This document shows positions 4,949 through 20,393 of a stretch of 45,833 bases of DNA, piece by piece (the stretch's first letter is position 1; each line of letters begins with the position of its first letter). The stretch lies in IMG/VR virus record IMGVR_UViG_3300031963_000271, positions 1-45,833 of that record; one strand, 5' to 3'. A program made the position numbers and the translations under genes. The stretch comes from a virus. The notes beneath the pieces are model-generated. The model saw only the letters and a list, made by a program, of their open reading frames with translations, was not told where the DNA came from and did no database searches.

Positions 4949-4969
4949 CTGGAACAAAAACCACTATGG

Positions 4970-5217: not shown

Positions 5218-5238
5218 GCCCTTTTTACCCCTATTTTT

Positions 5239-5574: not shown

Positions 5575-5620
5575 TGGAACAACCCCCATTTGTGCCCTAT
5601 AATACGTCACAAATGACGTA
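5575..5620 (+). promoter_or_regulatory. Promoter with inverted TACGTCA operator
   Basis: -10 TATAAT at 5598-5603 with a weak -35 TGGAAC at 5575-5580 (17-base spacer). The last T of the -10 is the first base of TACGTCA, which forms an inverted repeat with TGACGTA (5603-5609 and 5614-5620, 4-base gap). The operator covers the start site, so the bound protein should repress. Confidence 0.65.
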
Positions 5621-5656
5621 TCCGAGCCTTCTAATAAACAAAGTTGCCCAGAAGTC

Positions 5657-5685
5657 TTGACATACGTCACAAAACCCCCTATAAT
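5657..5685 (+). promoter_or_regulatory. Consensus sigma70 early promoter with operator in spacer
   Basis: TTGACA (5657-5662), 17-base spacer, TATAAT (5680-5685): both boxes fit consensus exactly. TACGTCAC (5663-5670) fills the first half of the spacer. It is the likely main early promoter for the genes from 5755 on. Confidence 0.85.
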
Positions 5686-5754
5686 GCGCGTGTTGGGGCA
5701 ATGCGCTCTGACACAGTCCTATTCAGTCACCCACCTCTGCCTGAGGTACTAGTT

Positions 5755-6093
5755 ATGGAGTCAGTCATGTACGCTCGTCCTCGTTCCCCCATCCTTGCTG
5801 GGTTCGTATCTATCAGCCCAGCCACGCATGAGTTCCTACCTAGAGCCACCCGCAAGGCCCTGCGCGTAGTGAAGCCTGCCGCAATCCCCCAGACCTACAC
5901 CAACTGGGATGCAGACACCCCAGACATCTGCGACTCCGACGATGCCCACATCCTGCGGGCCAATACGGTCGATCCTGACTTCGACCTCGACGGGTCCGCA
6001 GAGTTCAACGATTCAGACGGGTCTGAAGACCTGCACGGCCTGACCATCGTCAATGCCTGGGAGTACGACTTCCAGGGCTACAGCGTCCTTTGA
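5755..6093 (+). CDS. Hypothetical acidic early protein, 112 aa
   Basis: Unrecognised. First gene after the consensus promoter at 5657-5685. An ORF start further upstream (5644) is rejected because it would encode the promoter; ATG 5755 has GAGG at 5743-5746. ATG 5767 is an alternative. The first 45 residues are basic and Pro-rich; the second half is very acidic (DADTPDICDSDDAH, DPDFDLDGSAEFNDSDGSED), and the end is WEYDFQGYSVL. The product is small and acidic, and the gene is the first of the early operon. Inhibitors of host proteins or DNA mimics often look like this, but no function can be claimed. Confidence 0.7.
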   Translation: MESVMYARPRSPILAGFVSISPATHEFLPRATRKALRVVKPAAIPQTYTNWDADTPDICDSDDAHILRANTVDPDFDLDGSAEFNDSDGSEDLHGLTIVNAWEYDFQGYSVL

Positions 6094-6110
6094 TCTGAGG
6101 AGCAACTGCC

Positions 6111-6425
6111 ATGTCTCGCATCAAATCCCTCGTCTTCGACGACCAGATGAACTTCCGTGTCTTCCCTGAGGTAGTCATTCAGCGCAGTGTGAGTCACTCC
6201 ACACTGCTACGCCTCCAACGGGACCCTGCCCGTTTCCTGCAATGGTGCCGCCTGCGCACCATCCTCAAGCCTCACTGCCGCACTTCCCACACTTGGGAAG
6301 ACCCGGTGGATGCAACTCCGTTGGAAATGCATCGGTTCAAGATCGATGAGTGGATCTGCTCGTTCATCGTCGAGCGTGGCGAGATCAGCGAGTGGTCATT
6401 CAGCCACATCACCTGCGACAACTGA
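6111..6425 (+). CDS. Hypothetical protein, 104 aa
   Basis: Unrecognised. Good ribosome site GAGGAG before ATG 6111. The product has a basic, Arg-rich middle (STLLRLQRDPARFLQWCRLRTILKPHC) and an acidic C-terminus with FIVERGEISEWSFSHITCDN. Three Cys and several His are present without a clear zinc pattern. It sits 17 bases after the acidic protein and 10 bases before a small zinc-ribbon gene, in the early operon. Confidence 0.7.
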   Translation: MSRIKSLVFDDQMNFRVFPEVVIQRSVSHSTLLRLQRDPARFLQWCRLRTILKPHCRTSHTWEDPVDATPLEMHRFKIDEWICSFIVERGEISEWSFSHITCDN

Positions 6426-6435
6426 GGAGATGCCC

Positions 6436-6648
6436 GTGAAACCCATGAAGCCCCTGTGTGTCGCCTGTGGTGACACCTACTCTGCCGCCCGTCGTCTGGC
6501 TGGCTACCAACTCTGCCTGCCATGTGGCGAGGACCGGGCGCGAAGCGTCCGTCACACCATCGTGCCGATGCACAAGTCCAACTACCTGCTCATCACGGAC
6601 AGGGACGACCTGCTTGGCATCAACAACAAGGGAGGGCTGTACAGATAA
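6436..6648 (+). CDS. Small zinc-ribbon protein, 70 aa
   Basis: Two CxxC knuckles (CVAC near residue 7, CLPC near 26) form a treble-clef or zinc-ribbon fold at the N-terminus. The C-terminal part carries HTIVPMHKSNYLLITDRDDL and GINNKGG, a pattern I have seen in short uncharacterised phage proteins. GAGGAG at 6424-6429 directly touches ATG 6430, too close for initiation, so the GTG at 6436 (6-base gap) is preferred; ATG 6445 is also possible. Likely a nucleic-acid or protein adaptor; partner unknown. Confidence 0.65.
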   Translation: MKPMKPLCVACGDTYSAARRLAGYQLCLPCGEDRARSVRHTIVPMHKSNYLLITDRDDLLGINNKGGLYR

Positions 6649-6691
6649 CAACCCACCACACACTGAACCACTAACCACTACCGGAGTTCTT

Positions 6692-6850
6692 ATGTTCATC
6701 GCAGTTCTTTTCCATGCCCACGAGCCGATGCGCTTGTACGGTCCATTCGACACTGAAGATCAGGCGTTCGCCTGGGTGGATGAGCAGACTTTCGAAGCTG
6801 CAACCATCCATGAACTTCGTGCTCCCACCCCCGTGAATAACATCAACTGA
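6692..6850 (+). CDS. Hypothetical protein, 52 aa
   Basis: Short ORF starting MFIAVLFHAHEPMRLYGPFDTEDQAFAWVDEQ. GGAG precedes the ATG. The pattern of two strands, 'GPFDTEDQAFAWVDE' and another strand resembles small one-domain phage proteins of about 50 residues related in style to the 59-aa gene at 9162. It is followed after 13 bases by the 318-aa gene. No function known. Confidence 0.6.
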   Translation: MFIAVLFHAHEPMRLYGPFDTEDQAFAWVDEQTFEAATIHELRAPTPVNNIN

Positions 6851-6863
6851 CAAAGGAAACATC

Positions 6864-7820
6864 ATGTCAATCGATACAACTCTCTCCGCCCCTTCGCACC
6901 TCACCTCTTTGCACTCATCCTGCTACGTGGTATCCGTCGAGGTGTCCACGTGGGTGGGCACAAAGCAAGACAAGACGGTCTCCAACGAGGTGACAACCCA
7001 GAAGAAGGCATCTGCCGATGCTGGCAAGTTCACCAAAATGCTGATGGCAGGTAACGCCACGCACAAAGCCCTGGTGAATCATCGTCAAACGGTCTACAAC
7101 TGGCTGCAGAGATGCACGTATGACTGGGCGGGTAAGTCTCGCCTGTTACCAATGATGCAACTGCCGAAGTTCCAGAAGGAGTACGAGCAGCACTTGGCGC
7201 AGTTCAACCTGCTCAAGGAGAAGTTCGCTGCCGAGTACAACGGCATCGTGGCGAACATGGCCTTCGAACAAGGCGACCTGTTTAACAGGGCAGACTACCC
7301 TGACCTGCAAACTATCCTGGCTAAGTTCAACATGAGGTTGCTGGTCACTGACGTGCCGCGTGGTGACTTCCGCAACGCGGTCAGCGAGGAGTTGGCGTCC
7401 GACCTGCATACACACTACCAGAAACAGACGGAGACAATCGTCAAGGCAGCAATGGACAAAGCTGCAACGCGGTTGGTCTCTCTGGCTGAGCGTGTGGCTC
7501 ACGCCTGCTCTGAGCCCGAGGAAACCGTGGCCGAGGACGGCACGGTCAAGAAGGGACGCAGGCCCAAGATCGTCGAGGCTACGTTCGATCAGGCGCGGGA
7601 AATGTGCGCCATCCTGCGGGACTTCAACCTGACAGGCAACGAGGAGATCGAGGAAGCCCGCGCAAAGCTGGAGTCTGCGCTGCGTGGCGTGACAACGGAC
7701 GACCTGCGCGAGTACGCAACAAAGCGCAAGGCAGTCAAGGACGAGATGGACGACCTGCTCACACAGTTCGGAGCATTCAAGCGCATCGGGCGCGACGAGG
7801 AGGACGACGGGGACGAGTGA
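6864..7820 (+). CDS. DUF3150-like protein, first gene of the MoxR/VWA cassette
   Basis: 318 residues, helical and charged, with little hydrophobic core outside the middle. The N-terminus has SSCYVVSVEVSTWVGTKQDKTVSNEVTTQKKASADAGKFTKMLM, then a long coiled-coil-like region (KFQKEYEQHLAQFNLLKEKFAAEYN), a domain ending in DLHTHYQKQTETIVKAAMDKAATRLVSLAERV, and an acidic C-terminal tail. I assign DUF3150 from this pattern and from its place next to a MoxR-type ATPase and a metallopeptidase/VWA gene, an arrangement known in other phages and some bacteria. The biochemical role is unknown; it may be the client or structural partner of the ATPase. Ribosome site AAAGGAA. A CCCCCTGAGAA promoter begins directly at its stop codon. 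Confidence 0.65.
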   Translation: MSIDTTLSAPSHLTSLHSSCYVVSVEVSTWVGTKQDKTVSNEVTTQKKASADAGKFTKMLMAGNATHKALVNHRQTVYNWLQRCTYDWAGKSRLLPMMQLPKFQKEYEQHLAQFNLLKEKFAAEYNGIVANMAFEQGDLFNRADYPDLQTILAKFNMRLLVTDVPRGDFRNAVSEELASDLHTHYQKQTETIVKAAMDKAATRLVSLAERVAHACSEPEETVAEDGTVKKGRRPKIVEATFDQAREMCAILRDFNLTGNEEIEEARAKLESALRGVTTDDLREYATKRKAVKDEMDDLLTQFGAFKRIGRDEEDDGDE

Positions 7821-7821
7821 T

Positions 7822-7862
7822 CCCCCTGAGAACTTGACAAAGTTAACGCGACATTTTTCTCT
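7822..7862 (+). promoter_or_regulatory. Third CCCCCTGAGAA box with consensus -35
   Basis: CCCCCTGAGAA at 7822-7832, one base, then TTGACA at 7834-7839. The -10 expected 17 bases on (TTCTCT, 7857-7862) is poor. It lies in the 77-base gap before the MoxR gene and lets that gene be expressed apart from 6864-7820. Confidence 0.5.
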
Positions 7863-7897
7863 CAATCAGTTCTTCATTCAGTAAGGAAGTCTTAATC

Positions 7898-8971
7898 ATG
7901 GCAAACATCAGTTTCACCACCACCGTCACCCTGGACCAAGCAGCCAACCTCATCGAGGTGACGGGAGACGAGGTGACGAACATCCTTGTGGCCGAGCCGG
8001 GTATCGGCAAGACCAGCATCCTCAAGATGCTCGAAGAGCGCATGGGTGATGGGTATGACTACATCTACGTGGACTGCCCCGTCAAGGACATGATGGACAT
8101 CGGTGCCAACATCCCGAACCACGAGACCCGCACCCTGGACTACTACGCAGCCAGCCTCTTCAAGCTGTCAGGACCGGGCGCAAACCGACCCAAGGTCATC
8201 CTGCTCGACGAGTTCTTGAAGGCTCCGAAGCTGATGCAGATCATCTTCACGCGGCTCATCCTTGAGCGCATGGTGGGTGATGTGCCGCTGCCCAAGGGGT
8301 CATATGTCTTCGCTACATCCAACAACGTGACGGACGGGGTGGGCGATGCACTCCTCGGTCACGTGGGCAATCGCGTGGCTGTCATCCACGTGCGAAAGCA
8401 CAAGGCAGACAAGTGGAATGCATGGGCCAGCAAGGTGGGTATCTCACGGGTCATCCGCACATGGGTTGCTCTGAATCCTCGGTGCATGGCGTCCTACCTC
8501 GACGGCAATCAAGAAGATAACCCGTATATCTTCAAGCCGGGTAAGCCCGGACAGTTCGTGTCTCCCCGGTCTCTGGCAAAGGCGAACGTGCCGATCTCCC
8601 GTAAGGATCGCTTGAGCGAAGACGAGTTGCAAGCGCAGCTCGCTGGCATCCTTGGCGAGGCTGCTGCCCGGTCGATGTCAGCGTTCGTGTCGATGAGCGA
8701 CAAGGTACGTGATGTCAAGGACGTGCTCGCTGATCCGAAGGGCATCGAAGTGCCAGAGGATATCGCTGCCCAAGTGATGATGATGTTCCAGGCTGTCGAT
8801 GTACTCGAAACGCAGGATGAACTGTCCGCGTTCATGGAGTTCGTCAACCGCATCAAGTCAGCCGAGGTGCAGGCTATCTTCTTCACGATGATGGCAAACC
8901 AACGCATGAAGCTGGCAAAGAACAACTCAGCCATCCGTGAGTGGATGCGTGTGAACTACGTGCTGGTGTAA
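7898..8971 (+). CDS. MoxR-type AAA+ ATPase
   Basis: AAA+ ATPase of 357 residues. Walker A VAEPGIGKTS at 31-40, Walker B KVILLDEF at 99-106 and sensor 1 YVFATSN at 136-142 are visible, followed by ALLGHVGNRV (151-160), matching the MoxR pattern in which a remodelled loop contacts the substrate. MoxR ATPases work with VWA-domain proteins to insert cofactors, activate enzymes or remodel complexes; the VWA partner is encoded at 9334. Only two genes of about 60 residues separate them. A helicase-loader role cannot be excluded, but the VWA partner argues against it. Good ribosome site TAAGGAAG. Confidence 0.88.
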   Translation: MANISFTTTVTLDQAANLIEVTGDEVTNILVAEPGIGKTSILKMLEERMGDGYDYIYVDCPVKDMMDIGANIPNHETRTLDYYAASLFKLSGPGANRPKVILLDEFLKAPKLMQIIFTRLILERMVGDVPLPKGSYVFATSNNVTDGVGDALLGHVGNRVAVIHVRKHKADKWNAWASKVGISRVIRTWVALNPRCMASYLDGNQEDNPYIFKPGKPGQFVSPRSLAKANVPISRKDRLSEDELQAQLAGILGEAAARSMSAFVSMSDKVRDVKDVLADPKGIEVPEDIAAQVMMMFQAVDVLETQDELSAFMEFVNRIKSAEVQAIFFTMMANQRMKLAKNNSAIREWMRVNYVLV

Positions 8972-8982
8972 GGAGAAAGCAA

Positions 8983-9165
8983 ATGAAGATCAAAGTCAAA
9001 GCCGTGAAGCAGTACGGAAGCTGGGTGTACTACCCAGTGTGTGGCAAGGCTGGGCTGTTTGCCCAGATCGCTGGCACCAAGACGCTCACCTCGCATGTCT
9101 TATCTCTCATCAGAGAGATGGGGGTAGAGGTGGAAGTGCAACAGGAAAACCCGGAGGGTGTATGA
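8983..9165 (+). CDS. Hypothetical protein, 60 aa
   Basis: Starts MKIKVKAVKQYGSWVYYPVCGKAGLFAQIAGTKTLT after AAGGAGA. The form (basic beta strands, then a helix LTSHVLSLIREMGVEVEV) resembles short phage proteins with a conserved YYPVC core that are common near replication genes. It ends in an ATGA overlap with the next gene. Function unknown. Confidence 0.65.
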   Translation: MKIKVKAVKQYGSWVYYPVCGKAGLFAQIAGTKTLTSHVLSLIREMGVEVEVQQENPEGV

Positions 9166-9341
9166 AAACCTATTACGTCCAACTGGTGAAGACCATCTAC
9201 GTCCTCATCAACGCTGAATCAGAAGAACAAGCTGCTGAGAAAGCAAAACAAGACAGCGAGGGGTTCGCCTACGACGGGCACTGGGCCCACGCAAAACCTA
9301 TGGTGTATGACGTATCAGAACAAGGAGTCTACGATGCTTGA
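9162..9341 (+). CDS. Hypothetical protein, 59 aa
   Basis: Starts in the ATGA overlap at 9162 and ends 8 bases into the next gene, so it is translationally coupled on both sides. MKTYYVQLVKTIYVLINAESEEQAAEKAKQ is the strand-helix pattern typical of small DpnD/PcfM-like phage and plasmid proteins (a beta strand, then an 'AESEEEAAEKA' helix). The function of that fold is unknown. Confidence 0.65.
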   Translation: MKTYYVQLVKTIYVLINAESEEQAAEKAKQDSEGFAYDGHWAHAKPMVYDVSEQGVYDA

Positions 9342-10566
9342 CCTCGAAATCAGAATCAAGAAGGCCCACGTGGCGCTCATGCGCCATCCCGAGACTGCGC
9401 TGTACTCGGGCGTGATGATGGCAGGTAGTAGTTCAGTCTCGGATGAGCCCATAACTGCGGCGACTAATGGACTGGACAAGTTCTACGGCAGAGCATTCAT
9501 GTCCAAACTCTCCGATCAGGAGATCAACGGCATCGTGCTGCACGAGAACCTGCACGTGGCGCTGCGCCATCTGGTCCACAACCGTGACCTCTTCAATGAA
9601 GATAGGCGCACGGCAAACATAGCAGCAGACTATGTGGTCAACGGGATCATCAACGGGCTGAAGGACACGAGACTGTGCAAGCTTCCGCAAGGGGCGCTGT
9701 ACGAGCCTCAGTACGACGGCATGTCGATGCGGGAAATCTATCGCCTCCTGAGGAAGAATAAGAAATCTCAACCGCAGCAGCCGGGACAGCCATGCCAGAA
9801 TGGACAGAATGGCGATCCATCTAATCAGCCCGGTCAGTCTCAATCCGGTAAGGATGATCCATCGGAATACGGTGGATTCGATGAGCACGACCTGAGCAGT
9901 GGCCCAGCCGACGCTGAGGAACTAAAGAAGGTGAGCGAGGCAGTGGACCGGGCGCTGCGTGAGGGTGCCCTGATTGCTGGTCGGTTCGGGGTTGATATCC
10001 CCCGCGCTATCGGTGAGTCGCTGGAACCGCAGGTTGACTGGCGGGCAGAGTTGATGGACTTTGTGGTCAATGCAACATCAGGCAAGGATGAGTACTCCTG
10101 GCGTCGCTACAACCGTCGAGTCATCGACACCATGCTCCTGCCTACCACCGTGAATGAAACGATAGGAGAGATTGTTGTTGCCATCGACACATCAGGTTCT
10201 ATCGGCGGCAGCGAACTCGGACTATTTGTCTCAGAACTGGTATCTATCTGTGAGATGGTAACTCCCGAGCGTGTCCGGGTTTTGTGGTGGGGCACGATGG
10301 TGGTCGGGGAGCAACTCTTCGAAGGCGACTATCAGAATCTCAAGACTCTACTCAAGCCCCGTGGAGGTGGTGGCACTCGCGTCGGGTCGGTGAGCGATCA
10401 CATCATCAAAAATAACATCTCAGCAGATGCTGTGATTGTATTTACAGACGGCTACGTCGAGGCACAAATCGATTGGAGGATATCGATTCCCTCCTTGTGG
10501 CTTGTGACTCAGTACGATAGGATGAGCGTCCCCGTGGGCGGTAAGCTTGTCAAGTTCAACAAGTAA
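9334..10566 (+). CDS. HExxH metallopeptidase-like plus VWA domain protein
   Basis: 410 residues with two parts. The N-terminal domain has HENLH at residues 70-74, an HExxH zinc site, followed by the helix RRTANIAADYVVNGIINGL, as in the DUF2201-type putative metallopeptidase domain. After a Gln/Gly/Asn/Pro linker (about 144-175), the C-terminal domain is VWA-like: VVAIDTSGSIGGSE (281-293) contains the DxSxS metal-binding site and DAVIVFTDGYVE a later acidic strand. In MoxR systems the VWA protein is the partner of the ATPase, here at 7898. Start ATG 9334 follows AAGGAG at 9322. Whether the peptidase site is active is unknown. Confidence 0.85.
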   Translation: MLDLEIRIKKAHVALMRHPETALYSGVMMAGSSSVSDEPITAATNGLDKFYGRAFMSKLSDQEINGIVLHENLHVALRHLVHNRDLFNEDRRTANIAADYVVNGIINGLKDTRLCKLPQGALYEPQYDGMSMREIYRLLRKNKKSQPQQPGQPCQNGQNGDPSNQPGQSQSGKDDPSEYGGFDEHDLSSGPADAEELKKVSEAVDRALREGALIAGRFGVDIPRAIGESLEPQVDWRAELMDFVVNATSGKDEYSWRRYNRRVIDTMLLPTTVNETIGEIVVAIDTSGSIGGSELGLFVSELVSICEMVTPERVRVLWWGTMVVGEQLFEGDYQNLKTLLKPRGGGGTRVGSVSDHIIKNNISADAVIVFTDGYVEAQIDWRISIPSLWLVTQYDRMSVPVGGKLVKFNK

Positions 10567-10593
10567 GTTTTCAATCAGTCAAAGGAAGTCATC

Positions 10594-11538
10594 ATGCGAG
10601 TATCTGACCTTCGTCCTTACATCTATAACCCAACAGACGCACTCGTCGAGAAGTTTGAGTTGCGGATGAGTTCGTACCCTAACGCTCTGACGGTACTTGC
10701 CGCAGAGTTCTGTACTGCTACAGGGTTCCTCATCGATCCTACCCCTCGCAGGGGTAGGTTGGCAGTAGATTTGGTGTTGCCCAGCGGCATCGAGGCTGGC
10801 TATCTCACCGTTCAGTTAGATGGGGGTGACCACATCTACGGGTACACGCACCACGTTGTCAACAAGACACGCGGCGACAAGTACTCCAGCGACAAGAGCA
10901 CTCGGTCTTCTAAGAAGATTCACAGCCTGCTTGCTGCATTGCGTAAGTGCAACGAGATATACAGCCAATCCAGGGCAGAGAGTTTTCTCTTCCAAGACTT
11001 CCAGACCTCGTACAAGTACGCGATACCTGACACGAGGGAGATTACATTCAGGGTGCCTTCACAAGCAGCATTGGCGGCGGCGCAGTTCGCCCTCAAGCGG
11101 ACTGATTACCTCCCACATGAGGTGATAGTTACGCTAAACGCAGCGATGAGTGACTACGACGCTGAAGTCGCACAAGACAAGGACAAGAATGCAATCAAGG
11201 CTCGCTTCGACGCGGGCGTGTATGTCCTGGCGGTGTCTCCTCTATCTACCGTAGAGCATCCCATCTACTACTTCTGGGAGACAGAGAAAGAGCCCATCCA
11301 CAATGTAATGAAGGCCCCGAGAAACCTCAAGCGTTACGCCACGATAGAAGACATCGAGCCTATCCATCTCGATATGGTCTTTGCCAAGACAGAGTTTGAG
11401 AAAGTCACCAACTACAACGTGCGGGACCCGTATCACATCCCTCGCTCAGACAAGTACTACCCTGAACTTGACATGAGCACGTGCTACATCAGCAGTTTCA
11501 TGTACGTAGTCATCCCCAAGAAAAAGGAGGGGGCATGA
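10594..11538 (+). CDS. Hypothetical protein, 314 aa
   Basis: Unrecognised. AAAGGAAG precedes the ATG. Residues about 60-110 contain LAVDLVLPSGIEAGYLTVQLDGGDHIYGYTHH and a basic Ser-rich stretch (KYSSDKSTRSSKKIHSL). The second half is mostly beta-rich with a run of Tyr. No transmembrane segment or metal motif is clear. It follows the VWA gene after 27 bases and overlaps the next gene by ATGA, so it may belong to the MoxR cassette as an added subunit, but this rests only on position. Confidence 0.7.
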   Translation: MRVSDLRPYIYNPTDALVEKFELRMSSYPNALTVLAAEFCTATGFLIDPTPRRGRLAVDLVLPSGIEAGYLTVQLDGGDHIYGYTHHVVNKTRGDKYSSDKSTRSSKKIHSLLAALRKCNEIYSQSRAESFLFQDFQTSYKYAIPDTREITFRVPSQAALAAAQFALKRTDYLPHEVIVTLNAAMSDYDAEVAQDKDKNAIKARFDAGVYVLAVSPLSTVEHPIYYFWETEKEPIHNVMKAPRNLKRYATIEDIEPIHLDMVFAKTEFEKVTNYNVRDPYHIPRSDKYYPELDMSTCYISSFMYVVIPKKKEGA

Positions 11539-11942
11539 TCGGTGGGAGCAATCGCTTCTTCGCAGGTTACCCTCCCATGCCGTACAAGCATGGGCGGAAA
11601 GATGATCTCTACCGTTGTGTCCTGTGTCAGTCAGGAGATATGTACAAACTGTACACAACGCGAGAGCGGGTGTTGCACTACACCGATGAGACCCTGCCTG
11701 ATCCCATAAAGATTGCGTTGGGTTTCATCAAGGCTATCCCGGCGCGTAACACGAACCCTTGGGCGCAAGCGGGGGACCTGTACATGAACAACCACAGCCC
11801 CAAGCTAGACGGTATAGGTTGGCTAGGGAAAGTGGACCTCGTTCATTTCGAACCACCCAACGTATACCAACCCATCAAGGAGTATTACTACGTGATCATC
11901 CTGCCTCGTGACGTACTCAGTGAAATCTCTAATGGACTGTAG
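11535..11942 (+). CDS. Hypothetical protein, 135 aa
   Basis: Start ATG lies in the ATGA overlap with the previous gene, with AAAGGAGG just upstream. One CxxC (RCVLCQSGD, near residue 28) and a Tyr/Pro-rich body are visible. The C-terminus is a hydrophobic strand (EYYYVIILPRDVLSEISNGL). No family recognised; the coupling suggests it works with the 314-aa product. Confidence 0.65.
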   Translation: MIGGSNRFFAGYPPMPYKHGRKDDLYRCVLCQSGDMYKLYTTRERVLHYTDETLPDPIKIALGFIKAIPARNTNPWAQAGDLYMNNHSPKLDGIGWLGKVDLVHFEPPNVYQPIKEYYYVIILPRDVLSEISNGL

Positions 11943-11950
11943 GGGTACGC

Positions 11951-12247
11951 ATGTCTAAAACTCCGGAAGCAAAAGTCAAAGCGCAAGTTGACAAAGTTCT
12001 GAAGGATCTTGGCGCGTACTCATGCAAGCCCATGACGGGCGGGTATGGGGCGTCAGGGGTGCCTGACATCCTCGCGTGTGTACGCGGAAGGTTTGTGGGC
12101 ATCGAGTGCAAAGCAAAGGGTAACAAGACCACTGCCTTGCAGGATTACAACCTCGCGCAAATCAAACGCGCTGGGGGCATCGCCCTTGTGGTCGATGAGT
12201 TCAACGTACATCAACTCAGTTTATTGATTCAGGAGAACATGAAGTGA
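11951..12247 (+). CDS. VRR-NUC domain nuclease
   Basis: 98 residues, the full size of a stand-alone VRR-NUC domain, a PD-(D/E)XK-type fold. The active-site pattern is visible: GGYGASGVPDILAC (GxPD, about residues 30-40) and FVGIECKAKG (ExK, about 50-58), then a Gln/Asn helix ALQDYNLAQIKRAGG. Such phage proteins are structure-specific endonucleases acting on branched or flapped DNA during replication and recombination. It ends in a GTGA overlap with the next short gene. Confidence 0.92.
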   Translation: MSKTPEAKVKAQVDKVLKDLGAYSCKPMTGGYGASGVPDILACVRGRFVGIECKAKGNKTTALQDYNLAQIKRAGGIALVVDEFNVHQLSLLIQENMK

Positions 12248-13944: not shown

Positions 13945-14162
13945 CTGACGATCAGTTCCGCGAACTCTGCAATACCTTTGGCTTCGCCCCCAGCAGGGCA
14001 CTGCGGGAGATGCTGGATAAGGCGATGGAGCAGGAGCGTGAAAGCTGCGCGAAGGTGTGTGACTTTGAAGTGGCGCGGCTGCACGCGATTGATGAGCCGC
14101 GTCCTGCGCTGGCCGTTGGCATCTGCGCCGCCGCCATCCGCGCAAGGAAGGATAAGCAATGA
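13941..14162 (+). CDS. Small conserved phage protein, 73 aa (family with 15956)
   Basis: Carries the pattern QERESCAKVCD...CAAAIRAR, common in short phage proteins of unknown function; the paired Cys may bind metal. A second copy of the family lies at 15956-16213, and 29 bases around the RESCAKVC codons are identical between them (14034-14062 and 16088-16116), pointing to recent duplication or recombination. Starts with ATGACTGAC in an ATGA overlap. Confidence 0.7.
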   Translation: MTDDQFRELCNTFGFAPSRALREMLDKAMEQERESCAKVCDFEVARLHAIDEPRPALAVGICAAAIRARKDKQ

Positions 14163-14254
14163 CCCGCATCCATTACTGGTGCCCGGTGTCTCGGGCGTAT
14201 GTTACGGCCATCGTGCCGACCGAGGTTGCTTTCAAAATGATGGGGTGGGTATGA
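14159..14254 (+). CDS. Candidate micro-ORF, 31 aa
   Basis: Fills the 88-base gap between two ATGA-coupled neighbours and itself starts and ends in ATGA overlaps. The product is MTRIHYWCPVSRAYVTAIVP plus 11 residues. Only its perfect place in the chain argues that it is translated; it might serve mainly to carry ribosomes to the next start. Confidence 0.45.
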   Translation: MTRIHYWCPVSRAYVTAIVPTEVAFKMMGWV

Positions 14255-14568
14255 CTGACCGCGAACTCCTTGAACTCGCTGCGAAGGCGGCGGGGATTGA
14301 GCTATGGCACGAAGATGTGTTCACCAACGGCTTGACGCACAAGGTGAGCGACAACGGAGTGTTGTGCTGGAACCCTCTCACCGACGACGGCGATGCGCTG
14401 CGGCTGGCGGTGAAGTTGCTGTTTGAAATTGACATGGATCGCAGGAGCATTGCCATTAGGCACCAAACTGGCGTCAAGATTCTTCGGGCTTTCAACAACG
14501 ACCCCTACGCAGCCACCCGCCGCGCCATCGTCAGGGCTGCGGCTGAGATTGGAAGGAGCATGAAATGA
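14251..14568 (+). CDS. Small phage protein, 105 aa, duplicated cassette A1
   Basis: MTDRELLELAAKAAG, WNPLTDDGDALRLAVKL and AIVRAAAEIGRSM are the conserved blocks of a small phage family of unknown function. The gene at 14915 is a paralogue: 54 bases are identical (14365-14418 and 15044-15097). ATGA-coupled at both ends, with GGAAGGAG before the next start. Unit A of a two-gene tandem duplication. Confidence 0.75.
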   Translation: MTDRELLELAAKAAGIELWHEDVFTNGLTHKVSDNGVLCWNPLTDDGDALRLAVKLLFEIDMDRRSIAIRHQTGVKILRAFNNDPYAATRRAIVRAAAEIGRSMK

Positions 14569-14918
14569 CCATCACCATCGACCGAGCCGTGGCCCAGCAG
14601 GCGCTGGAGGCGTTGGAGGGTTTAAGCGAACCCTACTATGTCTTGAAAGCCCAAGACGCCCTCCGCGCCGCGCTGGAGCAGCCGGAGCAGGAGCCGGTGG
14701 CGTCCATCTACGTGACGATAGGTGGAGATCGAGAGTTTGACGACTGGCGCTGCCCGCTGCCTGTAGGAGGAAATCTTCTCTACACCCACCCACCCCGCCG
14801 CGAGTGGCGAGGGCTGACGGAGGAGGAGCATGAGAAAGCCAGACACGTCTGTCGGCATGTCGGCGTTGAAGGGCTTGTGTTATGGCTTGAAGATAAGCTG
14901 AAGGAGCGAAACGCATGA
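14565..14918 (+). CDS. Small phage protein, 117 aa, duplicated cassette B1
   Basis: Pattern QQALEALEGL...DALRAALEQPEQEPVA...LLYTHPPRREWRGLTEEE. This modular type is widespread in phages: a helical N-terminus, then EPVA, a variable segment and a 'LYT.PP' turn. The paralogue at 15229 shares these blocks. Function unknown. ATGA-coupled on both sides. Confidence 0.75.
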   Translation: MTITIDRAVAQQALEALEGLSEPYYVLKAQDALRAALEQPEQEPVASIYVTIGGDREFDDWRCPLPVGGNLLYTHPPRREWRGLTEEEHEKARHVCRHVGVEGLVLWLEDKLKERNA

Positions 14919-15232
14919 CTGACCGCGAACTGCTTGAGGCCGCTGCGAAGGCGGCGGGGCTGAAGATTCACGCCGCTCGACAGGCTGAACGCGACGAGGA
15001 AGGGTGCGCCAATTCCGGCCTTTGGATCGTCAACGGCTCAACCTGCTGGAACCCTCTCACCGACGACGGCGATGCGCTGCGGCTGGCGGTGAAGTTGGAG
15101 GCGTGTATTGACTTTATGGATCGCAGAGTGGTTGCGGGGGCATGGCCTGAAGTTGTCATTGACTTCACAGACGAAGACTATCGCCGCGCCATCGTCAGGG
15201 CAGCATCAGAGATTGGAAGGAGCATGGCATGA
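14915..15232 (+). CDS. Small phage protein, 105 aa, duplicated cassette A2
   Basis: Paralogue of 14251-14568, of identical length, with the same N-terminal MTDRELLEAAAKAAG, central WNPLTDDGDALRLAVKL and C-terminal RRAIVRAASEIGRSM. The segment between (residues 17-45) differs and has extra Cys. The 54-bp identity with its copy indicates a recent origin or gene conversion. Confidence 0.75.
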   Translation: MTDRELLEAAAKAAGLKIHAARQAERDEEGCANSGLWIVNGSTCWNPLTDDGDALRLAVKLEACIDFMDRRVVAGAWPEVVIDFTDEDYRRAIVRAASEIGRSMA

Positions 15233-15621
15233 CTGACCTACGAACCGCCGCCCAGCAGGCGCTGGAGGTACTTGTTCGCGCCAGCAGTTACTACGACACA
15301 TACGCAGAGATTGCCGCTCTTGAGGCCGCGCTGGCAGAGCCGGTGCAGGAGCCGGTGGCGTGGCGATGGAGGATGCGAAACCTTACAGACGCGCCGGGTT
15401 TTGTCCAGCCGTGGAAGGTAACAACCTACTACCCACGGGAGCAGGCAAACGAGATCGAGCCCCTCTACACCGCCCCACCCCAGCGCAAGCCGCCAGCAAC
15501 CATTGACGAGATGTTCGACCGCATGGACAAGGCCCCCAAAGGGGTGTTCTTTGGGCATGACCCGATGACGATCTGGATGGAGGCTTGGCGGGCTGCGGAG
15601 CAGCAGCATGGGATCACATGA
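15229..15621 (+). CDS. Small phage protein, 130 aa, duplicated cassette B2
   Basis: Paralogue of 14565-14918: AAQQALEVL, AALEAALAEPVQEPVAW, EPLYTAPPQRKPP. The C-terminal third (MFDRMDKAPKGVFFGHDPMTIWMEAWRAAEQ) is different from the first copy, so the family has a constant front and an exchangeable end. ATGA-coupled. Confidence 0.75.
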   Translation: MTDLRTAAQQALEVLVRASSYYDTYAEIAALEAALAEPVQEPVAWRWRMRNLTDAPGFVQPWKVTTYYPREQANEIEPLYTAPPQRKPPATIDEMFDRMDKAPKGVFFGHDPMTIWMEAWRAAEQQHGIT

Positions 15622-15959
15622 AACTCAACTGGGAAAACGTCAAGGGTGTGCTTGAGCAGTGCGGGCCGATGACCATGCGTGAGGTGGCTACGTACTTTCC
15701 TGACCATCCATACCCAAACGTAAGCAGCCTGCTCTCTGCCATGCGGTTACGGGTACAGACCAAGCAGATCTACATCCACTCATGGACCCGTGAGGGTATC
15801 GGCAGGAAGTACCTCCGTGCTGTTTACGCAGTGGGCAACAGACGCAACGCAAGTAAACCTCCGGTCATCAGTGACTACGAGAGGAAGAAAGCATACCGAG
15901 AGAAGAAAAAGGTGCCGCAGGTTGCGGTGAACTCAGTGTTTACATGGGGGCAGCAATGA
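15618..15959 (+). CDS. Winged-helix-like DNA-binding protein, 113 aa
   Basis: Start ATG lies in the ATGA overlap. Residues about 5-50 (WENVKGVLEQCGPMTMREVATYFPDHPYPNVSSLLSAMRLRVQTKQIYIHSW) read as helix, helix-turn-helix and a wing, a common small phage DNA-binding fold. The C-terminus is very basic (YERKKAYREKKK). It may regulate phage or host promoters; the target is unknown. Confidence 0.65.
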   Translation: MKLNWENVKGVLEQCGPMTMREVATYFPDHPYPNVSSLLSAMRLRVQTKQIYIHSWTREGIGRKYLRAVYAVGNRRNASKPPVISDYERKKAYREKKKVPQVAVNSVFTWGQQ

Positions 15960-16213
15960 ATAAGGAAGACGTCATCCGCATGGCGCGGGAGTCTGGGTTC
16001 AAACCCCACCATAGCCCAGAGATGTGGGACATCACGATTGCCTCTGACGAGGCCATTGAACGCTTCGCCACCCTTGTCGCCGCTGCCGAGCGTGAAAGCT
16101 GCGCGAAGGTGTGTGATGACCTACAGCGTAGCTACTGGAACAGCACTCGCGTGATGGACGAACCTGATGCGTATGACTGCGCCGCCGCCATCCGCGCAAG
16201 GGGGCAGGGATGA
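15956..16213 (+). CDS. Small conserved phage protein, 85 aa (family with 13941)
   Basis: MNKEDVIRMARESGF at the N-terminus, then AAAERESCAKVCDD and CAAAIRARG, the same constant blocks as the protein at 13941 but with a different front. The two share 29 identical bases over RESCAKVC. ATGA-coupled at both ends. Confidence 0.7.
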   Translation: MNKEDVIRMARESGFKPHHSPEMWDITIASDEAIERFATLVAAAERESCAKVCDDLQRSYWNSTRVMDEPDAYDCAAAIRARGQG

Positions 16214-16398
16214 AACAACTAACCCTCGTCAGCGCAGTACTGCTGTCGGCCTGCTCAGTTCAAAAAATGGAGCGCTTCACTTTGCGAACGGTGGACGGTA
16301 AAGAGATCATCCTCGTCTGTCCGGTCAAGAGAGTGGAGGGCGACCTACAACTGAGGGGCGGGCATTGCTTGGTGGAAGTGCCAAAGGAGCGGAAATGA
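16210..16398 (+). CDS. Small lipoprotein, 62 aa
   Basis: MKQLTLVSAVLLSAC is a short signal peptide with lipobox LSAC; the mature protein would begin at Cys15 and be about 48 residues, with two more Cys that could form a disulphide (VCPVKR, GGHCLVE) in the periplasm. It lies in the early/middle operon, far from the lysis genes, which fits a superinfection-exclusion or envelope-modifying lipoprotein better than an Rz1 spanin. That role is inferred. Confidence 0.7.
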   Translation: MKQLTLVSAVLLSACSVQKMERFTLRTVDGKEIILVCPVKRVEGDLQLRGGHCLVEVPKERK

Positions 16399-16583
16399 CC
16401 TACCAACCACAAGACTTCGCCCGCTGTGCGGGTAACCCATGCTTTGAATACTGCAAGGCATGTAAACGCAACCTCAAGAACTCTCCGGTTCACCCGGAGG
16501 CTACGAGACAGTACTACATGGGGCCGTGGATCATGGAAGATGAACGCTGCCCTAGCTTTGTGGAGAAGAAGGAGGATGTTTAG
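16395..16583 (+). CDS. Cys-rich protein, 62 aa
   Basis: MTYQPQDFARCAGNPCFEYCKACKRNL contains C-x4-C-x3-C-x2-C, with a further Cys near the end (DERCPSF). A zinc-binding or ferredoxin-like knuckle is likely. Similar short 'C.NPC...C..C.RN' proteins occur in many phages. ATGA-coupled start; its end overlaps the next gene by 8 bases. Confidence 0.65.
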   Translation: MTYQPQDFARCAGNPCFEYCKACKRNLKNSPVHPEATRQYYMGPWIMEDERCPSFVEKKEDV

Positions 16584-16797
16584 ATGCCCCGAGTGCAACG
16601 TGTGGACGGAGGTGATAGACACGCGAGTGAGGTCAGATGGATCGCGCCGCCGTCGTTACCAGTGCGGGAACCTGCACAAGTTCTGGACAGAGGAACGCAT
16701 AACCCCTGGCCCTTCCTCTACAGCTATCAAAAAGACGGAAGCGTTAGTGTCAATAGAGGAGCAAAGAAAACGACTTACCAACAAGCTACTGAAGTAG
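16576..16797 (+). CDS. Zinc-ribbon protein (NrdR/Ogr-like), 73 aa
   Basis: MFRCPECNVWTEVIDTR...RRRRYQCGNLHKFWTEE: CxxC, a beta hairpin with Arg-rich tip, then C-x4-H. This is the zinc-ribbon form seen in the N-terminus of NrdR and in Ogr/Delta-type phage activators. The C-terminus is a basic helix. It begins at ATG 16576 behind AAGGAGG and closes the coupled chain. It is a candidate DNA-binding regulator, possibly of late genes, by analogy with Ogr; that is an inference. Confidence 0.65.
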   Translation: MFRCPECNVWTEVIDTRVRSDGSRRRRYQCGNLHKFWTEERITPGPSSTAIKKTEALVSIEEQRKRLTNKLLK

Positions 16798-16878
16798 GAG
16801 AAGCAATCATGTAAATAAGTCTTCACAGTTCCCTGAAACACTACCTATCAACTCAGTCAAAACGATTGGAAAAACCAA

Positions 16879-17268
16879 ATGCAAAAGAAGTCAGACGCCG
16901 CAAGAATTCGTGAGTACTACGAGAAGCACCCCAACGCAAAGCCGGGGGAAGTAGCCAAGGCGTTGAAGGTCAAGCCGGGTAGCGTGTACGTGACCCGCCA
17001 GAAGATGAAGAATACCTTTGAGGTAGCCCCGTTCCCCGTTGCCGCTGATCCGGCTCCTGCCGAACCCCCCGCTGCCGACCCGGTCAATCACCCGCCCCAC
17101 TACAAGACTGGTGGTATCGAGACCATCGACTTCATCGAAGCCAAGGGGTTGAACTACCGCCTGGGCAACGTGATCAAGTACATCACCCGCTCCGAGCACA
17201 AGGGCAACCGCAAGGAAGACCTGCAGAAAGCGTTGTGGTACTTGCAACGTGAGATTGATCAATCCTGA
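16879..17268 (+). CDS. DUF3310 protein with N-terminal HTH
   Basis: Residues about 6-45 (ARIREYYEKHPNAKPGEVAKALKVKPGSVYVTRQKMK) form a helix-turn-helix. A Pro/Ala linker follows, then DUF3310 (NHPPHYKTGGIETIDFIEAKGLNYRLGNVIKYITRSEHKGNRKEDLQKALWYL, about 68-125). DUF3310 is found across tailed phages; in T7 the related gp1.7 handles nucleotides. The added HTH suggests DNA or promoter targeting. It is followed by a terminator, so it ends the small-gene operon. Confidence 0.85.
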   Translation: MQKKSDAARIREYYEKHPNAKPGEVAKALKVKPGSVYVTRQKMKNTFEVAPFPVAADPAPAEPPAADPVNHPPHYKTGGIETIDFIEAKGLNYRLGNVIKYITRSEHKGNRKEDLQKALWYLQREIDQS

Positions 17269-17284
17269 TACATCTCATTCCAAC

Positions 17285-17312
17285 AAACCGGGCTCCGGCC
17301 CGGTTTTATTTT
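17285..17312 (+). terminator. Rho-independent terminator after DUF3310 gene
   Basis: 9-bp stem AAACCGGGC/GCCCGGTTT (17285-17293, 17298-17306) with TCCG loop, then TATTTT. Confidence 0.9.
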
Positions 17313-17344
17313 CACTTTTGACCACGCTAGTTAGCGAGTACTGA

Positions 17345-19216
17345 ATGAGTTTCATCACGTTGGATTTTGAAACTTTCTACGACAAGTCGTTCTCGTTGAG
17401 GCGGCTGACTACCGAAGAGTATGTCCGTGGAAAGCAGTTTGAAGTTATCGGTGTTGGTGTCAAAGTCGATGATGCCCCCGCAGTTTGGACTTCAGGAGAC
17501 CGTGCGTTCCTGACTAAGTTCTTGCGCAAAGAGTTCGACTGGAAGAACAGCGCAGTCCTGGCTCACAACATGCTCTTCGACGGAGCAATCCTCGCGTGGT
17601 ATTTCGGTATCACTCCCGCCTACCTATGCGACACGCTTTGTATGGCTCGGGCGCTTCACGGTGTGGATGTAGGTGGGTCACTCGCTCACTTGGCGCAGAT
17701 GTACCAGATCGGAGTCAAAGGCGACGAGGTAGTTGCAGCGGAAGGCAAGCGTCGGGAGGCGTTCACGCCCGAGGACTTGGCGCAATACGGACGCTACTGC
17801 TGCAATGACGTGGAGTTGACGTACACCCTGTACAACCGCTTCGCGAATTCATTCCCCGAGTCGGAGATGGACCTCATCAACCAGACTCTACGGATGTTTA
17901 TACAACCAAAGTTATATATCGATGAGCCCGTGCTGCACGAGCGCCTTGCCTCACTGCACGAGGAACGTAGCGAACTGTTGGGCAAACTCAAAGAACAACT
18001 TCAATGCCAGACCGAGGATGAGGTTGCAGCGAAGTTATCCAGCAACAAACAATTCGCAGAAGTTCTGACATCTTTTGACGTCCAAGTTCCGATGAAGACA
18101 AGCCCCGTCACAGGCAAGGAAGCCCCTGCCCTGGCAAAGAAGGACGAGGGATTCTTGGCGCTTTGTGACCACGAGAACACCTTCATTCAGAACTTGTGCG
18201 CTGCACGCCTGGGTGTGAAGTCCACTCTGGAAGAAAAGCGTATCCAAAGATTCATCGACATCGGTAGGCGCAACGCTGGGCGCATCCCCATCCCGTTGAA
18301 GTATTACGGCGCACACACCGGGCGCTGGGCGGGGTACGACAAGGTGAACTTCCAAAACCTGCCGAGCCGGGATGTGAAGAAGAAAGCACTGAAGAATGCC
18401 ATCGTGCCGCCTGAAGGGTACGTGGTCATCAACTCAGACTCCTCGCAGATCGAGGCGCGGGTGCTGGCGTGGCTGGCAGGTCAGGATGACGTGGTGAAGA
18501 TGTTCGCGGAGAAGCAGGATGTCTACCGGATCATGGCGTCCAAAATCTTCAAGTGCAAGCCGGAGGAAGTTACAGAGGAGCAGCGCTTCATCGGGAAGAC
18601 CGTGATCCTGGGCTGCGGTTACGGCACCGGGTGGGCGAAACTCCAGTCCACGTTGGCGGTAGCCTCACCTCCGCGAGTGGTTACCGAGGCGCAGGCTCGG
18701 GAGATTATCGACGTTTATCGGGAGGCAAATAATAAGATCAAGGAACTGTGGGCCGAGGGTGACTTGGTGCTCAGAGACCTTGTGCAGTGGCAGCAACCCG
18801 AGGATCGGTATGCGTTTGGGCAGAGGGATTGCTTGAAGTATGACCGGCAGGGGTTCATCCTGCCCAACGGGTTCCGTATCCGCTACCCTGAGCTAAAGAC
18901 TGAGGTTGAGAACAACAAAACAAAGTACGTCTATAAGTCTCGCAAGGGTCCGGTGTCGATCTGGGGCGGGACCATCGTGGAGAACGTGGTCCAGGCGCTT
19001 GCGCGTTGCATCGTCGGAGAACAGCTAGTCAACATCTCCAAGCACTACAACGTGGCGCTCACCGTCCATGACTCGGTGGTGTGTATCGCCCCCGCCGATG
19101 AGGTAGAGCAAGCGTTGCAGGTAGTCACTGGCATCATGTCTACCACCCCATCCTGGGCTGAAGGGCTACCCATCGCCTGCAAGGCAACTTTCGGCCCCAA
19201 CTACGGCGACTGCTGA
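17345..19216 (+). CDS. Family A DNA polymerase with 3'-5' exonuclease
   Basis: Replicative phage polymerase of 623 residues, no 5'-3' exonuclease domain. Exo I LDFET at 6-10, Exo II AHNMLFDGA at 73-81, Exo III YCCNDVELTY at 151-160. Polymerase motif A INSDSSQIEARVLAWLAG near 361-377, motif B RFIGKTVILGCGYG near 413-426 and motif C TVHDSVV near the C-terminus. In motif B the residue four after the catalytic Lys is Leu, at the place of Phe762 in E. coli Pol I; motif C reads HDS where E. coli has HDE. The ATG at 17345 has a poor ribosome site. Neighbours are a nuclease, helicase and primase, forming a complete replisome set. Confidence 0.95.
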   Translation: MSFITLDFETFYDKSFSLRRLTTEEYVRGKQFEVIGVGVKVDDAPAVWTSGDRAFLTKFLRKEFDWKNSAVLAHNMLFDGAILAWYFGITPAYLCDTLCMARALHGVDVGGSLAHLAQMYQIGVKGDEVVAAEGKRREAFTPEDLAQYGRYCCNDVELTYTLYNRFANSFPESEMDLINQTLRMFIQPKLYIDEPVLHERLASLHEERSELLGKLKEQLQCQTEDEVAAKLSSNKQFAEVLTSFDVQVPMKTSPVTGKEAPALAKKDEGFLALCDHENTFIQNLCAARLGVKSTLEEKRIQRFIDIGRRNAGRIPIPLKYYGAHTGRWAGYDKVNFQNLPSRDVKKKALKNAIVPPEGYVVINSDSSQIEARVLAWLAGQDDVVKMFAEKQDVYRIMASKIFKCKPEEVTEEQRFIGKTVILGCGYGTGWAKLQSTLAVASPPRVVTEAQAREIIDVYREANNKIKELWAEGDLVLRDLVQWQQPEDRYAFGQRDCLKYDRQGFILPNGFRIRYPELKTEVENNKTKYVYKSRKGPVSIWGGTIVENVVQALARCIVGEQLVNISKHYNVALTVHDSVVCIAPADEVEQALQVVTGIMSTTPSWAEGLPIACKATFGPNYGDC

Positions 19217-19251
19217 TACGATTGAAACCCCTCACACAATCAATCAGTGCC

Positions 19252-19917
19252 ATGCAAGTAAGCGAACTCAAGTGGTCATATTCTGGGTTGAAGGATTACC
19301 AGAACTGTCCGAAGCAGTATCACGAAGTCAAGGTCCTGAAGCGTTTCGAGAAGCGCCCCACGAAGCAAATGCTTTATGGCACGGAGGTGCATTCGGCGCT
19401 TGAAGACTACGTGAAAGCGGGTAAACCCTTAGCCAAGAACTACGAGCGGTTCCGCCACATGCTGGATCCGCTGGCTGAGATGGCGGGGATAAAGTATCCA
19501 GAACATCGCATGGCGGTGACACATGACCGCCGCCCGTGTACGTTTGGCGCGGCTGACTACTGGGTGCGAGGAATCGCGGACTTGCTGGTGGTTGACGACG
19601 ACACTGCGTTCATCGTTGACTACAAAACCGGCAGCAACAAGTACCCTGACCCGAAGCAGTTGCAGTTGATGGCGCTCATGGCGTTTGAACACTTTCCGGA
19701 AGTCAACGGGATCAAGGCAGGCTTGCTGTTCGTCATGCACGACCACTTCGTCACCTCGGAGTACAAGCGTGATGACAAAGACAAACTCTGGCTTGACTTC
19801 ATGCCCACCCTAGAACGCTTGAGTTTGTCCCACAGAAATCAAGTGTGGCAGGAGAACCCGACGCCCTTGTGCGGCTGGTGCCCTGTCAAGTCTTGTTCCT
19901 TTCACAGAGAGAAATAA
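19252..19917 (+). CDS. PD-(D/E)XK nuclease, Cas4/AddB-like with Fe-S cysteines
   Basis: A 221-residue RecB-family exonuclease domain. YGTEVHSALE (H47), GIAD (D110), FIVDYKTG (D123 and K125) and a Gln at 136 form the active site. One early Cys (C19, in NCPKQY) and three late ones (C207, C210, C215, in CGWCPVKSC) match the four-Cys 4Fe-4S arrangement of Cas4 and AddB. No cas genes are near, so its place next to polymerase and helicase suggests replication or recombination. ATG 19252 is preferred over an upstream TTG (19222), which would add 10 residues; neither has a good ribosome site. Confidence 0.88.
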   Translation: MQVSELKWSYSGLKDYQNCPKQYHEVKVLKRFEKRPTKQMLYGTEVHSALEDYVKAGKPLAKNYERFRHMLDPLAEMAGIKYPEHRMAVTHDRRPCTFGAADYWVRGIADLLVVDDDTAFIVDYKTGSNKYPDPKQLQLMALMAFEHFPEVNGIKAGLLFVMHDHFVTSEYKRDDKDKLWLDFMPTLERLSLSHRNQVWQENPTPLCGWCPVKSCSFHREK

Positions 19918-19920
19918 CCT

Positions 19921-20124
19921 ATGGATACCGCAGAAGTGATTGACTACGCCTATCCCTGCATGATGGCAGAGAAGGCGCTGAAGGAAGTACATCTAGCCAT
20001 GCTTGCCCAGGATCACGGCGCAGCAATTGAAGCTGCTCACAAAGCGCTGGTTGAGGTCAAAATGACGTTGAACTCCATCGTCTTGATGCAGGAGAAAGAC
20101 CATGCCATACACGAAGTCTCCTAG
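19921..20124 (+). CDS. Hypothetical helical protein, 67 aa
   Basis: All-helical, 3 bases after the nuclease gene. Two amphipathic helices (CMMAEKALKEVHLAMLAQDHGAAIEAAHKALVEVKMTLNSIVLM) suggest a dimer or helical hairpin. Its last 23 bases overlap the HNH-like gene. Function unknown. Confidence 0.65.
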   Translation: MDTAEVIDYAYPCMMAEKALKEVHLAMLAQDHGAAIEAAHKALVEVKMTLNSIVLMQEKDHAIHEVS

Positions 20125-20356
20125 GCCGTACAAACACGAGTACGAGATGCAGAAGAAGCGCGGAGAGCACGAGGACCGCATGGAGCGGCAACGTGCCCGC
20201 AGGGAACTGGACAAGAAGGGCGTGAGCCGCAAGGGCAAGGACGTTGCGCACGTCAAGGCGCTGTCCAAGGGCGGCAGCAACGACGACGGCTACAAGCTTC
20301 AGGCCCCCAGCAAGAACCGATCATTCAGGAGAAACCCTGATGGGTCGATGAAATGA
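20102..20356 (+). CDS. Small HNH-like protein, 84 aa
   Basis: Very basic, with a helical N-terminus (YEMQKKRGEHEDRMERQRARREL) and a C-terminal part KDVAHVKALSKGGSNDDGYKLQAPSKNRSFRR. The H..L..GG.ND...L...S.NRS pattern is that of a compact HNH (beta-beta-alpha metal) finger, with His in AHV and Asn in ND and KNRS. The first HNH position is weak, so activity is uncertain. Ribosome site GGAG. Such short HNH proteins recur in phage replication regions. Confidence 0.6.
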   Translation: MPYTKSPRPYKHEYEMQKKRGEHEDRMERQRARRELDKKGVSRKGKDVAHVKALSKGGSNDDGYKLQAPSKNRSFRRNPDGSMK

Positions 20357-20357
20357 C

Positions 20358-20393
20358 TTGACGAATAGGTCACAAGGCCCTATCATTCGTCAC
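20358..20393 (+). promoter_or_regulatory. Promoter for the helicase operon with two operator-like sites
   Basis: -35 TTGACG (20358-20363), 17-base spacer, -10 TATCAT (20381-20386). TAGGTCAC (20366-20373) lies in the spacer and TTCGTCAC (20386-20393) starts on the last T of the -10, the same positions used by TACGTCAC in the promoters at 5657 and 5598. Confidence 0.75.

What the first reader, a model, noticed from the sequence alone, without database searches (positions are those of the whole stretch)
5575..20393. TACGTCAC operator in matching promoter positions, a phage-wide regulon
The 8-mer TACGTCAC (or one-base variants) lies at the same places in three plus-strand promoters. It starts on the last T of the -10 at 5603 (TATAAT) and 20386 (TATCAT), and it lies inside the spacer at 5663 and 20366. 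At 5603 it forms an inverted repeat TACGTCA/TGACGTA. The same site occurs three times upstream of the terminase operon (3073-3120, minus orientation) and in the 26-bp inverted repeat (4886-4937). I read this as an operator for one regulator acting on early, replication and packaging transcription.
Basis: partly seen in the sequence, partly recalled or inferred. Interest (0 to 1): 0.75.

Follow-up and report, generated by a model that had tools for sequence, protein, structure and literature searches.

The report
Phage early-promoter operator and its relatives
The repeated 8-letter DNA word in this phage is very probably a real regulatory site: it sits inside the main early promoter and upstream of the DNA-packaging genes, and related phages carry either the same word or a changed version of it at the same place, so it is likely the docking site of one gene-control protein, which is still unidentified.

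Summary
TACGTCAC occurs 8 times (1.0 expected) and 7 copies lie in the 6% of the window that is noncoding. The promoter placements are as described, although P1 (5598-5603) has no good -35 and the 20366/20386 copies are one-mismatch variants. The regulon idea is supported for two places, the early promoter P2 (5657-5685, a 12/12 sigma70 match) and the array upstream of the putative terminase operon. It is only suggested for the helicase promoter, and "phage-wide" is too strong. A narrow P2 pattern scanned over all IMG/VR hit 7 stretches, all in this phage family. L297 has four tandem copies, 26 bp apart, upstream of terS. The new result is that relatives lacking TACGTCA carry GTmAAGTT in the same early-promoter spacer, exactly 4 nt before the -10 hexamer: in 15 of 15 such records tested first, none with the reversed control, absent from window and G003. 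TACGTCAC therefore looks like this clade's version of a family-wide spacer operator. The best candidate binder is the family-wide XRE-like protein at 23255-23578, whose recognition helix reads R-N only in window and G003. Repression of early genes is inferred, not shown. A known kind of system, new member.

The parts
3073..3080 (-). TACGTCAC, array copy upstream of putative terS, reading along terS transcription
   Evidence: exact match
3096..3103 (-). TACGTCAC, array copy; part of the 18-nt repeat GTGACGTATGGAACGAAG
   Evidence: copy number and spacing differ in relatives (L174 3 copies at 23 bp, L297 4 at 26 bp, L093 2 at 27 bp)
3113..3120 (-). TACGTCAC, array copy
3007..3024 (-). probable -10 region (TGCTACATT) just upstream of putative terS; TGnTAyATT in many relatives
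   Evidence: by eye on upstream sequences of relatives
4864..4959 (.). imperfect inverted repeat holding TACGTCAT (4886+), TACGTCAC (4906+), TACGTCAT (4930-)
5554..5561 (+).
5598..5603 (+). -10-like TATAAT of putative promoter P1 (no good -35)
   Evidence: not reported by the promoter scan
5603..5620 (+). inverted pair TACGTCA-caaa-TGACGTA at P1
5657..5685 (+). early promoter P2: TTGACA-17-TATAAT
   Evidence: 12 of 12 match; same promoter in L093, L174, L297, G003, L191
5663..5670 (+). TACGTCAC in the P2 spacer (main operator)
6111..6425 (+). gene in the operon behind P2, found only in phages with TACGTCA at P2; alternative regulator candidate, no known fold
20358..20386 (+). putative promoter P3 upstream of helicase: TTGACG-17-TATCAT
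   Evidence: its GTCA-to--10 distance (12 nt) equals that of the family-wide element
20366..20373 (+). TAGGTCAC, one-mismatch copy in P3 spacer
20386..20393 (+). TTCGTCAC, one-mismatch copy on P3 -10 end
23255..23578 (+). XRE/Cro-like helix-turn-helix protein, best candidate binder

Best explanation
TACGTCAC (core aTACGTCA) is the operator of one phage-encoded DNA-binding regulator. Its main site lies in the spacer of the strong host-sigma70 early promoter P2. Further sites surround P1, the 4.86-4.96 kb inverted repeat and the control region upstream of the putative terminase operon. It is this clade's version of a spacer operator found in most relatives as TTATATGTmAAGTT, fixed 4 nt before the -10 hexamer. 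The most likely mechanism: host RNA polymerase uses P2 at once after infection; the regulator, most likely the XRE-like protein at 23255-23578, accumulates, binds the spacer and shuts early transcription down, while the extra copies upstream of terS bring that region under the same protein. Shown by computation: enrichment, placement, presence in relatives, the counterpart word in other relatives. Inferred: that a protein binds, which protein, that the two words are versions of one operator, and repression rather than activation.
For: Enrichment and noncoding location. Narrow P2 pattern in all IMG/VR: 7 stretches, all in this family; 0 in GTDB genomes. Arrays upstream of terS in L297 (4 copies, 26-bp period), L174, L093, and three copies in G003/L111. 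Family-wide counterpart: GTmAAGTT has TAyAmT exactly 4 nt downstream in 32 of 244 distinct occurrences, against 0-2 at that spacing for five control words. The composite pattern is in 15 of 15 records with R-M type HTH, 0 reversed controls, 0 of 2 R-N type records. 25 of the 32 promoters have an extended -10 (TGn) and many lack a good -35, so the spacer word does not track the -35. L191 is intermediate (CTTGACGTATACGTCAAGTT, a family palindrome that contains TACGTCA). HTH: XRE-like arrangement (AF2 pLDDT 85.5; RsaL Z 6.7, HigA2 Z 6.6, P22 c2 Z 5.0).
Against: No binding or transcript data. In the window clade the copies are mostly single asymmetric words without a fixed inverted partner, which fits poorly with a Cro/CI-type dimer. 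Copy-by-copy conservation of the noncoding sites is not above the conserved background (4 of 7 kept in L297, P 0.09; 2 of 7 in L093, P 0.60). The HTH correlation rests on two phages; R-Q (L044) and R-A (L049) proteins also go with GTmAAGTT. In the window clade the site sits 2 bp further from the -10 than in the rest of the family. L191, the intermediate, was found by searching for TACGTCA.
Confidence: 0.5

Rival explanations
1. The sites bind another phage protein, most likely the product of ORF 6111-6425 in the P2 operon (autoregulation), not the HTH protein.
For: Its relatives were found only in phages with TACGTCA at P2 (window group, L093, L297, G003).
Against: No recognisable DNA-binding fold (AF2 pLDDT 72, no significant PDB match); not found in L191, which has the motif; cannot explain the GTmAAGTT version in relatives without the gene.
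Confidence: 0.15
2. A replication-initiator system: direct-repeat copies act as iterons and the inverted copies at promoters autoregulate, as plasmid Rep proteins do; the 4.86-5.6 kb region is the origin.
For: Direct-repeat arrays (17-27 bp) beside inverted pairs; a second repeated word (TTGGAACA/CTAGAACA and variants) at the same place in most family members; DnaA-box-like TTATCCACA at about 5421, kept in L093 and L297; cumulative GC skew minimum at about 6.75 kb.
Against: The skew also follows gene direction; no Rep-type initiator was recognised; the terS-side TACGTCA array is not in the repeat-rich stretch but 1.7 kb away; the family-wide element is tied to the -10 at fixed spacing, which points to promoter control.
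Confidence: 0.1
3. The spacer word is an activator or RNA-polymerase element (a positive element) used with an extended -10, not a repressor operator.
For: Fixed 4-nt spacing to the -10 and many relatives with poor -35 (best match 1-3 of 6 in 22 of 32).
Against: In window, L174, L297 and G003 the promoter has a perfect consensus and would need no activator; spacing shifts by 2 bp in the window clade; copies upstream of terS have no fixed relation to a -10.
Confidence: 0.15
4. The sites bind a host regulator.
For: The host is unknown, so this cannot be excluded.
Against: The word changes between phages of one family while its place is kept, and the P2 pattern is absent from the GTDB species genomes scanned.
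Confidence: 0.08

Closest known systems
Early-promoter operators of XRE/Cro-CI-type phage repressors (lambda CI/Cro, P22 c2)
   Same: Sites overlap strong early sigma70 promoters, occur in clusters, candidate binder has an XRE-like arrangement
   Different: Window-clade sites are asymmetric single words without fixed dyad; no integrase seen among the proteins scanned; one cluster flanks a terminase control region
Mycobacteriophage L5 operators/stoperators (asymmetric 13-mers bound by a monomeric repressor; PMC9283540)
   Same: Asymmetric site, single copies, orientation mostly along transcription (16 of 18 terS-upstream copies in window, L174, L297, L093, G003, L111; related phages, not independent)
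   Different: Not spread along the genome; no repressor of that family recognised; 8-bp core
F plasmid RepE iterons and inverted-repeat operator (PMC13028717)
   Same: Same word as direct repeats and as inverted pairs at a promoter
   Different: No Rep-type initiator recognised; promoter-locked spacing family-wide

Membership tests
Lambda CI/Cro-type repressor-operator system | Candidate regulator has XRE/Cro-CI helix-turn-helix fold | tested here: inconclusive
   AF2 model pLDDT 85.5; best VIA Z 6.7, under 8, so only a common arrangement is certain; best viral structure match A0A516LPI0 E 7e-6, unnamed
Lambda CI/Cro-type repressor-operator system | Palindromic operators with constant half-site spacing | tested here: not met
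   Window-clade array copies have no inverted partner; TGAC-to-GTCA gap is 4 in window/L093 and 6 in G003/L191. In TTGAC-bearing relatives CTTGAC-N6-GTCAAG is palindromic
Lambda CI/Cro-type repressor-operator system | Protein binds the site and represses | not testable with these tools
   needs gel shift and reporter assays
L5-type stoperator system | Asymmetric site oriented with transcription | tested here: met
   16 of 18 terS-upstream copies lie along terS
L5-type stoperator system | Sites spread over the genome in short intergenic gaps | tested here: not met
   All exact noncoding copies in the window lie at 3.07-5.67 kb
Iteron/Rep replication control | Initiator of a Rep family encoded in the genome | tested here: inconclusive
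   No Rep hit among the proteins scanned; not every ORF was scanned
T4 MotA-box middle promoters | Element replaces the -35 at about -30 | tested here: not met
   Element lies downstream of a perfect -35 at P2

The most novel reading that the evidence does not exclude
One regulator, whose DNA word has switched from TATGTmAAGTT to TACGTCAC together with its recognition helix, ties early transcription, the origin-like repeat region and the packaging locus into one switch across a large environmental phage family, so that operator and protein alleles can be read off metagenomes as specificity groups.
Probability: 0.2. Interest if true: 0.65.

Novelty: new member of a known kind. Interest (0 to 1): 0.5.

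Why it matters
A fixed-phase spacer operator with two versions, together with a family-wide HTH protein, gives a direct and cheap test of which phage protein controls early genes and of how operator and regulator change together.

Tried and rejected
Site-by-site conservation test: not significant. Helicase-upstream site in relatives: not found. Winged-helix 15618-15959 and zinc-ribbon 16576-16797 as regulators: no relatives in motif-sharing G003. Class-II activation of terS: array distance too variable. HTH as binder of the GAACA repeats: repeat type does not follow the helix. Phage-database DNA search for the control region: no match. No PDB sequence match for the HTH. ORF 6111-6425 fold search: nothing significant. 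Search for more R-N type HTH phages: only window's own phage, G003 and the 4.7-kb contig L397, which is too short to carry the early region. Paper search for TACGTCA with operator and repressor: nothing on this family.

Full report
What the window is. The window is an IMG/VR virus contig of 45,833 bases. The same phage occurs as G001 (54.3 kb). G001 runs 19.6 kb beyond the window's left end and its far end overlaps the window's right end by about 127 bases, which implies a circle or terminally redundant genome of about 65.3 kb. Genes left of about 3.0 kb and right of 26.7 kb read leftward; genes from 3.3 to 26.5 kb read rightward. TerL is at 929-2440(-), DNA polymerase at 17345-19216, helicase at 20429-22009 and primase/helicase at 23585-26524. 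The ORF at 2421-3023(-) is called putative terS from its place beside TerL; no family model confirms it. The nearest isolates by TerL are phage 023Pt_psg01, DSL-LC04, the Pelagibacter phages HTVC027P/HTVC023P and three cyanophage records of identical length, at 43-52% identity.

Observation. TACGTCAC occurs 8 times against 1.0 expected; 7 lie wholly in noncoding DNA (6.3% of the window; P 3e-8), and an order-2 model of that noncoding DNA gives 0.09. P2 (5657-5685) is a 12/12 sigma70 promoter. P1 has no good -35. The copies at 20366 and 20386 are one-mismatch variants; matches with up to one mismatch are common in the window (40 outside 3.0-5.7 kb), but these two are the only noncoding ones. 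An exact copy at 5554 was missed.

Relatives that share the word. L093 (about 67% identity over the noncoding control region), L174 (92%), L297 (TerL 94% aa), G003 (TerL 85% aa) and L191 (TerL 67% aa over a 122-residue segment) all have TACGTCA in the spacer of a consensus-like early promoter. A narrow pattern for this promoter, scanned over all IMG/VR contigs, hit 7 stretches, all in this family (the one new hit, L297, checked), and none in GTDB genomes. L191 came from a looser scan that stopped at 120 hits, most of them unrelated, so it carries less weight; a reversed-heptamer control of that loose scan gave 78 hits. Upstream of putative terS the word forms arrays that differ in number and spacing: three in window (17 and 23 bp), three in L174 (23), two in L093 (27), four in L297 (26, 26, 26), three in G003/L111 (65 and 112 bp, one inverted). 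Around the searched core TACGTCA only the A before it is well kept. Single sites turn over: copy-by-copy conservation is not above background.

The family-wide counterpart. Comparing early-operon promoters of relatives without TACGTCA showed the same spacer occupied by GTmAAGTT. Over the family loci, GTmAAGTT is followed by TAyAmT at exactly 4 nt in 32 distinct places, with 3 or fewer at neighbouring distances and 0-2 at that distance for control words. The composite GTMAAGTTNNNNTAYAMT is present 1-2 times in each of 15 records, always on one strand per record, with no reversed-control hit, and absent from window and G003. In a second set of 15 records, many of them fragments, it was in 2. 25 of the 32 promoters have an extended -10, and the -35 ranges from near-consensus to none. 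The word is therefore not simply part of the -35 strength of the promoter, as expected of an operator, although a positive element is not excluded. L191 (CTTGACGTATACGTCAAGTT) is both a perfect family palindrome and a TACGTCA site; G003 (CTTGACACATACGTCAATAT) keeps the family spacing. In window, P3 keeps the family distance of 12 nt from GTCA to the -10, and P2 is shifted to 14. I read TACGTCAC as this clade's version of the operator; this is an inference from position and intermediates.

Which protein. The HTH protein at 23255-23578 was found in 15 of 21 family records searched and in G003 (45%). Its model has the XRE-like arrangement (Z under 8, so the fold assignment is supportive, not proof). 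Among the homologues aligned, window and G003 alone have R-N in the recognition helix. The 15 GTmAAGTT records have R-M; L044 (R-Q) and L049 (R-A) also have GTmAAGTT. This is a complete but small correlation, and the phages are related. ORF 6111-6425 is confined to TACGTCA phages but has no recognisable DNA-binding fold.

Mechanism. Repression of P2 by spacer occupancy is the simplest reading, because P2 is already a consensus promoter. Activation cannot be excluded for relatives with weak -35. At the terS side the distance between array and -10 varies from 53 to about 130 nt, so fixed contact with RNA polymerase is unlikely; repression, looping between clusters 1.8-2.6 kb apart, or a role in origin or packaging function remain open.

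Comparison. It works like an early-promoter operator set. It is not filed as a lambda-type or L5-type member, because a defining feature of each was tested and not met (fixed dyad; genome-wide spread), and iteron-type membership is inconclusive.

Noticed in passing
window 4864-5600: Second repeated word TGTTCTAG/TGTTCCAG (rc CTAGAACA/CTGGAACA), 17 copies of its 6-base core; at the same place most relatives carry many copies of a related but changed word (GTAGAACA, TTGGAATT, ATAGAACATG). Looks like origin iterons that differ between phages.
   Followed up: partly
window 5038-5104 and 5152-5218: Two near-identical 67-nt units with the palindrome CAACATGCACTGGATGTGCATGTTG, fully kept over about 46 nt in L093 although the region around is about 67% identical; minus strand reads TTGACA upstream of it. 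Possible leftward promoter-operator or structured RNA.
   Followed up: no
window 5415-5440: DnaA-box-like TTATCCACA in a conserved AAGTTATCCACAGAAAAAA, also in L093 and L297.
   Followed up: no
window 3000-3240 and terS-upstream regions of relatives: Family-wide order in terS direction: C-rich runs, GCACAAATAACT, a variable stretch, AACACCCCCCGTCAGGGACTCCTACC, then TGnTAyATT close to the terS start; possibly the packaging site.
   Followed up: partly
L141 upstream of terS (terS match starts at 1545): A different tandem array, about five copies of AAATCCCAAACTTGCACAACAT (22 bp), in the same variable stretch.
   Followed up: no
window 3232-3280 and 3942-3990: Repeated promoter-like cassette CCCCCTGAGAA ... 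GCTATAyA before two small genes; relatives have GCTATAAC with AACTTkAC at the -35.
   Followed up: partly
window 6415-6645: Small zinc-ribbon protein (CxxCGD...CxxCGE...MHKSNY), encoded in the early region of most relatives examined.
   Followed up: partly
window 14365-14610 and 15044-15268: Internal repeat of about 249 bp at 71%; short pieces of it match Pseudomonas phages ZC08 (98%) and PS-1 (90%).
   Followed up: no
window 26708-34000: 2430-residue protein with LPD38 domain (PF18857) near its C terminus.
   Followed up: no
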